Assembly (NCBI GenBank): GCA_014239555.1
Contig: JAAZYR010000008.1
Coordinates: forward strand, 81,318 to 145,317
DNA from: Acidimicrobiales bacterium
Lineage (GTDB): Bacteria > Actinomycetota > Acidimicrobiia > Acidimicrobiales > Poriferisodalaceae
Length of the DNA: 64,000 nucleotides
Reading direction: 5' to 3'
The translations under genes and the position numbers were made by a program. Positions 31,580-32,263 of the stretch are shown here, piece by piece (the stretch's first letter is position 1; each line of letters opens with the position of its first letter). The notes under the pieces were generated by a model. That model had not been told where the DNA came from, searched no databases, and saw only the letters and a list, made by a program, of their open reading frames with translations.

Positions 31580-32263
31580 GTGGCTGCAGTGGGACCTGAG
31601 CTTGATCTGACCTACTGGACGATCATGCGAGAGATGGTTGCAACCGGAGTCGCTCCGCATTACGCGGAATTAGCTCCCCAACTTGGGATCTCTCCATCTG
31701 AATCGTTACGGCGGATAGAGCGGATCATGGAGTTAACACCTGGTTGGATGCATCCAGGTACCGACTACATCGCTTCATTCCCGCCTTTCAATAACCAGCC
31801 GACTCCATACCGAGTAGCAGTTGACGGGCGACAACGTTGGTTTGCCCAATGTGGTTTCGAGGCATTGGCGTGCTCCTGGTTTTTCCCGGGAAAGGTCGTG
31901 CATATTGACGCTCCGTGTCTGCTAGGTGATTCGCCGCTGCATCTCGAAATGCGGGACGGAGAGTTGCTTTTGGCGGAACCTGAAACTGTAGTCGGATACA
32001 CCCGAAGTCGGCTGGGGATGGAGGAACCCAATCAACCGTTTCGGTGAGGCGGCATGAATTTGTTCAGGTCTGAACAACACGCACGAAATTGGAATGAATG
32101 GAATGAGGAACTTTGCTGGACTCTTCACCCAGTCGTCTGGTGGGTTGAGACTTTCGGAATGTCCATATTCCGCAATCGTGCTCGACCGGACTTTATGACA
32201 TGGCTCGCAGGGGAGGAAGGCGCCGAAGCTATGACGCAACTTCGCGCACGGGTATCGGGATAG
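31580..32263 (+). CDS. MerB (alkylmercury lyase)-like selenoprotein, in-frame TGA read as selenocysteine 156
   Basis: Residues 1-155 (GTG start, GGAAGA seven bases upstream) and a 69-codon frame at 32054 lie in the same frame, separated only by TGA 32045-32047 and two Gly codons. Read through, the 227-residue protein aligns with MerB (about 212): an N-terminal winged-helix-like part, YRVAVDGRQRWFAQCGFEAL with C91 and E94 at the places of MerB C96 and D99, IDAPCLLGDSP with C113, then U-GGMNLFRS against MerB C159-CHVHFFAS without a gap, followed by EQHARNW against TAEDW. The TGA thus falls on a catalytic residue. A SECIS-like hairpin follows. In MerB the Cys pair and Asp cleave carbon-mercury bonds; whether this homologue acts on organomercury, another organometal or something else is unknown. 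Convergent with the CoA transferase gene, whose stop it touches. Confidence 0.85.
32045..32082 (+). promoter_or_regulatory. Bacterial SECIS-like element directing selenocysteine at UGA
   Basis: After UGA (32045-32047) comes TTGTTCA (32060-32066), loop GGTC (32067-32070) and TGAACAA (32071-32077), a perfect 7-bp stem. The apical AGGUCU equals that of the E. coli fdhF SECIS, and it starts 18 bases after the UGA compared with 17 in fdhF. A weaker lower helix pairs 32052-32053 with 32081-32082 and 32055-32056 with 32078-32079. The known requirement is binding of SelB to the loop G and U; both are present. Confidence 0.85.

What the first reader, a model, noticed from the sequence alone, without database searches (positions are those of the whole stretch)
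31580..32263. MerB-like protein with an in-frame TGA exactly at catalytic Cys159: a probable new selenoprotein
Two frames, 31580-32044 and 32048-32263, are in the same phase and separated by a single TGA. Translated through, the protein aligns with alkylmercury lyase MerB without a gap around the TGA: U-GGMNLFRS against C159-CHVHFFAS of MerB, and C91/E94 against C96/D99. A stop codon would hardly land on an active-site Cys position by chance while the sequence behind it stays conserved. A selenol at this place would be a stronger nucleophile and metal ligand than a thiol, which suits cleavage of carbon-metal bonds. I know of no characterised Sec-containing MerB, but cannot exclude that metagenomic surveys list one. 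The MerB alignment is from memory.
Basis: partly seen in the sequence, partly recalled or inferred. Interest (0 to 1): 0.95.

Follow-up and report, generated by a model that had tools for sequence, protein, structure and literature searches.

The report
Selenocysteine relative of mercury-lyase MerB
A bacterial gene related to MerB, the enzyme that splits methylmercury, has a UGA codon exactly where MerB has a catalytic cysteine, and this codon is likely read as selenocysteine; the same UGA recurs in dozens of relatives, so many genes filed as short mercury lyases probably encode full-length selenium enzymes, whose substrate is still untested.

Summary
Frame 31580-32263 (+) is open apart from one TGA (32045-32047, residue 156). 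Profile alignment to solved MerB chains puts residue 156 on catalytic Cys159, Cys91 on Cys96 and Glu94 on Asp99. In 90 distinct related sequences this codon is TGA in 80, Cys in 10, TAA/TAG in none. A 7-bp hairpin with a GGUC loop follows; 6 of 7 pairs show compensated changes. It is in 73 of 78 TGA forms and 0 of 10 Cys forms. The genome has tRNA-Sec, selA, selB and a selD with its own in-frame TGA. So this is very likely a selenoprotein. 161 of 168 database relatives examined end just before the TGA. Seven relatives have TGA at both catalytic cysteines. A MerB-like selenoprotein, SaoL, is in print, but this protein misses SaoL's cut-off and 'CU' motif. Organometal lyase activity is predicted, not shown: no MerA passes its cut-off in this draft genome and the six neighbours scanned are not mer genes.

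The parts
31580..32263 (+). Whole gene: MerB-like protein of 227 residues with an in-frame TGA; GTG start, TAG stop
   Evidence: Pfam MerB 61 bits across the TGA; model with Cys at 156, mean pLDDT 93.7
31850..31852 (+). Cys91 codon (TGT), aligned with MerB Cys96; TGA in seven relatives
31859..31861 (+). Glu94 codon (GAG), aligned with MerB Asp99; Asp in a second clade
31916..31918 (+). Cys113 codon, invariant in the 30-row alignment A2 (not in all relatives: Trp in L117-L119), aligned with MerB Cys117
   Evidence: Cys117 described as buried in PMC8261052 passages
32045..32047 (+). TGA, residue 156, predicted selenocysteine codon, aligned with MerB Cys159
32060..32077 (+). SECIS-like hairpin: 5' arm 32060-32066, GGUC loop 32067-32070, 3' arm 32071-32077; loop begins 19 nt after the UGA
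   Evidence: published bSECIS model read
32048..32260 (+). Coding region after the TGA (71 codons), conserved as protein

Best explanation
The gene at 31580-32263 likely encodes a selenoprotein of the MerB fold, in which a UGA codon at the position of MerB's catalytic Cys159, followed by a SECIS-like hairpin, is predicted to be decoded as selenocysteine and would act with Cys91 to cleave carbon-metal bonds. Shown here by sequence: UGA at this site in 80 of 90 distinct sequences of the family and Cys in the other 10; a covarying hairpin in register after the UGA; protein-level conservation after the UGA; selA, selB, selD and tRNA-Sec in the genome; residues aligned with solved MerB chains. Inferred: SelB binds the hairpin and delivers Sec-tRNA; a selenolate at 156 and the thiolate of Cys91 hold the metal of an organometal, most likely methylmercury or a similar compound; Glu94 takes the role of Asp99; the hydrocarbon leaves and the metal ion is handed to cellular thiols. 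In seven relatives both catalytic positions are UGA, so a diselenolate pair would do the same work.
For: Selenoprotein: codon counts; hairpin with 6 of 7 pairs changed on both sides, 0 of 500 shuffles reaching that; hairpin in 73 of 78 TGA forms, 0 of 10 Cys forms, and 0 of 81 Cys codons at site 91; 59 of 64 observed against 2.5% of synonymous recodings; published bSECIS limits met by the window (19 nt spacing, G first in the loop, -9.3 kcal/mol); tRNA-Sec, selB, selA, selD over cut-off, and selD itself carries an in-frame TGA; two Cys forms nested among Sec forms in the tree; dN/dS of 0.03-0.23 after the TGA in 16 of the 19 pairs that gave a value, 2 of 21 being saturated. Lyase: Pfam MerB; profile hits to MerB2 (1.7e-22) and MerB (6e-12 to 1.3e-10) with Cys96/Asp99/Cys159 aligned; model mean pLDDT 93.7, with 94-98 in the ten-residue blocks from 161 to 220 and 72 and 79 in those from 141 to 160.
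Against: No direct detection of Se or activity. No MerA over the cut-off in this draft genome of 95.6% completeness; the six neighbours scanned are metabolic genes (a hydroxyacid dehydrogenase, a glyoxalase-family protein, a short-chain dehydrogenase, a CoA-transferase, a carboxyltransferase, a PhyH protein), and no mer family is among the 25 commonest of 101 Pfam families at the neighbours of relatives (82 ORFs scanned). Scores lie far below the MerB equivalog cut-offs (21.5 against 193). Glu replaces Asp99. Three of 39 genomes and 3 of 22 carriers in the phylum sample show no clear tRNA-Sec; two of the latter three are incomplete, the third is 99% complete. The model is least sure just around residue 156. 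The hairpin energy of the window sequence alone is unremarkable (z -0.64; z 0.05), and the bSECIS rule alone is passed by 41.5% of synonymous recodings and by 3 of 10 Cys forms.
Confidence: 0.8

Rival explanations
1. A selenoprotein, but not a lyase: Sec156 and Cys91 form a metal-binding or selenenylsulfide redox pair on a MerB scaffold, for example a metal buffer, sensor or oxidoreductase. (This shares the selenoprotein part with the best explanation, so the odds overlap.)
For: No MerA over the cut-off, no mer genes among the six neighbours scanned, Glu in place of Asp99, weak helix-turn-helix hits at residues 28-51, below their cut-offs, and a fusion to an AAA ATPase domain in the two double-TGA relatives scanned.
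Against: All three catalytic positions of MerB keep chemically suitable residues, and many relatives keep Asp at 99.
Confidence: 0.25
2. The TGA is a true stop: the 155-residue protein is the product and the rest is a separate small gene or a relic.
For: 161 of 168 database relatives are annotated this way, and most rows of the DNA alignment have an ATG as the third codon after the TGA.
Against: No TAA or TAG at the site among 90 distinct sequences, and Cys codons in 10. The codon at that ATG is ATC in L022, L117-L120 and one L135 copy, so it is not a needed start. Downstream dN/dS is 0.03-0.23 in 16 of 19 pairs, with L061/L069 (1.07), L065/L073 (1.35) and L070/L071 (0.57) as exceptions. The hairpin covaries. 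The first piece alone lacks the Cys159 equivalent.
Confidence: 0.03
3. It belongs to the SAO system as a SaoL protein.
For: SaoL is a MerB-like selenoprotein; all 30 members of A2 match the SaoL model at E up to 0.01.
Against: 21.6 bits against a cut-off of 140, matching only residues 60-137; seven relatives scanned one by one, two of them Cys forms, score 31-59 bits; the residue before U is Arg, not Cys; none of the six neighbours scanned is a transporter or thioredoxin-like gene.
Confidence: 0.03

Closest known systems
Organomercurial lyase MerB (PF03243; NF009710, NF033555; PDB 1s6l, 3f2g) and MerB2 (5c17)
   Same: Domain family; Cys96, Cys117 and Cys159 positions in the same order
   Different: UGA instead of Cys at 159; Glu for Asp99 in this clade; far below equivalog cut-offs; no mer genes among the neighbours scanned; the last 30-40 of 233 profile positions are not aligned with MerB
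SaoL, MerB-like organometallic lyase selenoprotein (NF040728; named in PMC13188914, which cites Haft and Gwadz 2023, a paper not held here)
   Same: MerB-like selenoprotein, Pfam PF03243
   Different: Published motif CU; here RUGG, LUTG, NUSR, TUAS and similar, never C before U in the rows printed; score below cut-off; the review places SaoL's system in an operon with six selenoprotein genes, which is not seen in the genes next to this one
Bacterial SECIS elements (published bSECIS model; E. coli fdhF as a recalled comparison)
   Same: 3-9 nt loop with early G, stem of at least 4 bp, 16-37 nt after UGA; the GGUC loop resembles that of fdhF (recalled, not tested)
   Different: Stem-loop sequence nearly constant across distant phyla

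Membership tests
Bacterial selenoprotein | In-frame UGA with conserved coding sequence on both sides | tested here: met
Bacterial selenoprotein | SECIS element in the published spacing and loop limits, with covariation | tested here: met
Bacterial selenoprotein | tRNA-Sec, SelA, SelB, SelD in the genome | tested here: met
Bacterial selenoprotein | Homologues with Cys at the UGA site | tested here: met
   10 of 90 distinct sequences; P0054 and P0122
Bacterial selenoprotein | Selenium present in the protein | not testable with these tools
   needs mass spectrometry or 75Se labelling
MerB organomercurial lyase | MerB Pfam domain over its curated cut-off | tested here: met
   61 bits, cut-off 27
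MerB organomercurial lyase | NCBIfam MerB equivalog or exception cut-offs | tested here: not met
   21.5 against 193 and 17.1 against 200 bits
MerB organomercurial lyase | Cys96, Asp99, Cys159 | tested here: not met
   Cys96 present; Glu at 99; UGA at 159
MerB organomercurial lyase | MerA in the genome or mer genes alongside | tested here: not met
   no MerA over cut-off in the draft genome, best 310.9 against 454.45 bits; six neighbours scanned, none mer
MerB organomercurial lyase | Cleaves C-Hg bonds | not testable with these tools
   needs an assay
SaoL | NF040728 over cut-off | tested here: not met
   21.6 against 140
SaoL | CU motif | tested here: not met
   R-U-G-G; motif from the PMC13188914 table
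SaoL | Other SAO genes in the genome | not tested
   only six window neighbours were scanned

The most novel reading that the evidence does not exclude
A widespread, unrecognised branch of the MerB superfamily breaks carbon-metal bonds with selenium: one catalytic cysteine is selenocysteine across Actinomycetota, Rokuibacteriota, Nitrospinota and other phyla, and in one subgroup both catalytic cysteines are, making the first two-selenolate organometal lyase; databases hide it because gene callers stop at the UGA.
Probability: 0.5. Interest if true: 0.9.

Novelty: new variant of a known kind. Interest (0 to 1): 0.74.

Why it matters
Selenium binds mercury more tightly than sulfur does (recalled), and mercury-selenium chemistry is central to mercury toxicity (recalled), yet the only MerB-like selenoprotein that my paper searches turned up is SaoL. 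If this family cleaves organomercurials, bacteria without a mer operon could degrade methylmercury, and gene surveys that require Cys159 or trust truncated gene calls would miss them. The double-UGA forms would test directly what selenium adds at each of the two metal-binding positions. Whatever the substrate, a large set of public records (161 of the 168 relatives examined, some of them named organomercurial or alkylmercury lyase) is probably cut short at a Sec codon.

Tried and rejected
Sequencing error: rejected, same codon in 80 distinct sequences. Pseudogene or true stop: rejected. Reassigned TGA code: rejected, 39 of 59 of these genes end in TGA. In one search I also computed a chance probability for all 59 sites being TGA; it is void, since that set had been filtered for TGA, and I do not use it. 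One search cut frames at TAA/TAG, so I repeated the codon count with all stops as X. Rfam at E up to 10: no hit for the hairpin. Folding energy alone: weak for the window; over 57 sequences the mean z against synonymous recodings is -1.35. A second SECIS for the UGA at the Cys96 site: bSECIS rule met in 4 of 7, against 19 of 81 Cys codons there; not decisive. Neighbour genes: clusters shared by several loci are mostly those of close relatives of the window; these ORF calls are mechanical and include spurious antisense frames, and one search shows only 25 of 101 families. Viral contigs: one scan, no confirmed relative. tRNA-Sec enrichment in the phylum sample is weak (19 of 22 carriers against 259 of 396, p 0.024; the carriers were read by eye as best E below 1e-10, the background as over cut-off; G053, with a weak match and one TGA, was not checked). 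Structure search against the PDB: never available, so the comparison rests on sequence profiles; Cys91-Sec156 geometry was not measured. Two other in-frame TGAs in the window with hairpins look like gene ends. P0008 has Trp at both catalytic positions, which may be TGA read as Trp by its source; its DNA was not seen.

Rows dropped: one search dropped four rows (two with N, two duplicates), and the list it drew on had left out L010 and L033 (copies of L009 and L016) and all rows without TGA; the tree left out nine of 59 loci as short, broken or near-identical; the neighbour scan used 82 of 185 ORFs; one search used 40 of the 44 loci (39 genomes; the site is not reached in one of them, L058); one search lists 12 matches that do not reach the site (in L016, L027, L032, L033, L058, L060, L074, L075, L115, L116), among them frame-shifted contigs.

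Full report
What is there. The + strand frame from GTG 31580 to TAG 32261-32263 is interrupted only by a TGA at 32045-32047. Read through, it gives 227 residues. Pfam MerB matches residues 71-177, across the TGA (61 bits, cut-off 27). A profile of 30 relatives hits solved MerB2 at 1.7e-22 and MerB at 6e-12 to 1.3e-10; the three printed alignments (5c17, 3f2g, 3fn8) put residue 156 on a Cys in each, and the two MerB ones put Cys91 on Cys96, Glu94 on Asp99 and residue 156 on Cys159. An AlphaFold2 model made with Cys at 156 has mean pLDDT 93.7; ten-residue blocks from 161 to 220 score 94-98, while those from 141 to 160, which hold residue 156, score 72 and 79.

The same TGA elsewhere. One scan of species genomes returned 44 loci, and whole-genome searches of samples of the phylum and the class added more. 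With all stops read as X, 90 distinct sequences reach the site: TGA in 80, TGC in 8, TGT in 2, no TAA or TAG; 12 matches do not reach it. Other in-frame stops inside these matches are scattered singles or pairs, except TGA at the Cys96 site in seven. Named carriers belong to Actinomycetota (mostly Acidimicrobiia), Rokuibacteriota, Methylomirabilota, Nitrospinota, Tectimicrobiota, Deltaproteobacteria (Myxococcota in the tree's labels) and one Burkholderiales MAG. In the sampled class 61 of 345 genomes have a match to the family profile at E up to 0.001, Cys forms included. Of 168 database relatives examined, 161 end exactly one residue before this site, 2 have Cys there, 1 has Trp and 4 end elsewhere. 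These 168 are the listed best hits of two searches that found 449 and 2472.

The hairpin. Fifteen nucleotides after the first base of the TGA begins a 7-bp stem closed by GGUC: UUGUUCA-GGUC-UGAACAA in the window, CUCUUCC-GGUC-GGAAGAG in most others. In 61 distinct sequences 97% of pair cells are standard pairs, 6 of 7 pairs have changes on both sides, and 0 of 500 shuffles match that number or the covariation score; sliding the partner by 1-3 columns drops pairing to 42-59%. Shuffles do not remove relatedness, but the changes occur in different groups (the window clade, L117-L119, L118 alone, L120, L020). The tight form (6 bp, GGU loop, exact register) is in 73 of 78 TGA forms and 0 of 10 Cys forms, and at the Cys91 site in 0 of 81 Cys codons; 2.5% of synonymous recodings make it, against 59 of 64 real sequences. 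Cys forms L124 and L125 keep the peptide FRS but use CGC, which breaks the loop. The motif was defined after seeing the family. The published bSECIS limits (section 5 of PMC13188914, read whole) are met by 61 of 64 sequences, but also by 41.5% of synonymous recodings, so that rule alone proves little. Folding energy of the window sequence is not exceptional.

Machinery. The window's genome (2.72 Mb, 68 contigs, 95.6% complete) has tRNA-Sec with a TCA anticodon (65.5 bits), selB (288.7 bits, cut-off 242), selA (399, cut-off 268) and selD (369, cut-off 125). selD has its own TGA at L087 1531-1533, reading GAG-U-ACKLGP; that this is the usual Sec/Cys site of SelD is recalled. Clear tRNA-Sec genes (64 bits or more) are in 36 of the 39 genomes behind 40 of the 44 loci, and in 19 of 22 genomes of the phylum sample with TGA at the site, against 259 of 396 over cut-off in the whole sample. 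The misses are G404, G428, G432 and G042, G138, G256; G042 is 99% complete with 5% contamination and is an exception unless that contig is misbinned.

Selection and evolution. After the TGA, dN/dS is 0.03-0.23 in 16 of the 19 pairs that gave a value; 2 of 21 pairs were saturated. L070/L071 gives 0.57. L061/L069 and L065/L073 exceed 1; these two pairs differ in length or hold a run of N, which an ungapped count does not handle. In a 53-row tree the two full-length Cys proteins P0054 and P0122 are nested in separate Sec clades, as expected if Sec changed to Cys; one origin is not formally excluded. The codon for Met159, a possible restart site, is ATC in L022, L117-L120 and one L135 copy, so a second gene starting there is unlikely.

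Double UGA. L011-L013 and L130-L133, from seven genomes, have TGA at both the Cys96 and Cys159 positions; L013 lies on a 2.2 Mb contig. L011 and L013, the two scanned, continue in frame into an AAA ATPase domain. A SECIS-like hairpin after the first TGA passes the bSECIS rule in 4 of 7 (19 of 81 for Cys codons there), which is not decisive.

How it would work (inferred). MerB holds mercury with Cys96, Cys159 and Asp99, and thiols then remove the ion (PMC4525700, abstract and passages). With Sec at 159 the ligand would be a selenolate at neutral pH (recalled chemistry), a stronger nucleophile and mercury ligand, perhaps at the price of slower product release. Glu94 could serve as Asp99 does. 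The substrate is open: no MerA passes the cut-off (best 310.9 against 454.45 bits), and the six neighbours scanned are metabolic genes, shared mostly with close relatives. A lyase for methylmercury or another organometal is my best reading; a metal-binding or redox role is the main rival.

What is known. The 2022 review PMC9312934 lists an 'alkylmercury lyase MerB-like protein' and the 2026 review PMC13188914 names it SaoL with motif CU (passages). This protein scores 21.6 bits against SaoL's cut-off of 140, the seven relatives tested one by one also fall below it, and U follows Arg here. The Haft papers are not held, so I cannot exclude that they mention this branch. My searches selenocysteine + organomercurial lyase, selenoprotein + alkylmercury lyase, SaoL, organometallic/Sao, merB + Acidimicrobi, selenocysteine + alkylmercury lyase, selenoprotein + MerB and selenoprotein + Acidimicrobi gave no other description in the listings and passages seen; the library holds open-licence papers only. 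Word searches in PMC12013277, PMC2398784 and PMC5029168 found no MerB. The mer survey PMC8261052 stresses Cys96, Asp99 and Cys159 and, in the passages seen, says nothing of selenium in MerB. PMC12008989 reports merB and merA in marine-sediment genomes of another actinobacterial order (passage).

Verdict. The selenoprotein reading is strong (about 0.95 on its own); the organometal lyase function is plausible (about 0.55-0.6). The 0.8 given for the best explanation weighs both, and the first rival shares its selenoprotein part, so the odds overlap. It is a new variant of a known kind, with a double-selenocysteine subgroup that deserves testing.

Noticed in passing
L011, L012, L013, L130-L133: Relatives with TGA at both catalytic cysteine positions; L011 and L013, the two scanned, continue in frame into an AAA ATPase domain.
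   Followed up: partly
L087 1531-1533 (G000 contig C44): selD of the same genome has an in-frame TGA in GAG-U-ACKLGP, so SelD is probably a selenoprotein too.
   Followed up: partly
L040-L042 and L044-L047, after the MerB part: In these seven loci the frame runs on for about 145 more residues after the MerB-like domain; L040, the one scanned, has no Pfam match there.
   Followed up: partly
P0008 (database protein): Trp at both catalytic positions, possibly TGA read as Trp under another code; may be a further double-Sec form.
   Followed up: no
L117-L119: Three loci from the window's own order with TGA at the Cys159 site but Trp at the Cys113 position.
   Followed up: no
L116: TGA at the site but an inserted stretch and a different hairpin sequence just after it, in a frame with a further stop.
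   Followed up: no
window 3737 and 61196, + strand: Two other TGAs with a downstream hairpin and open frame; both look like ordinary gene ends.
   Followed up: yes
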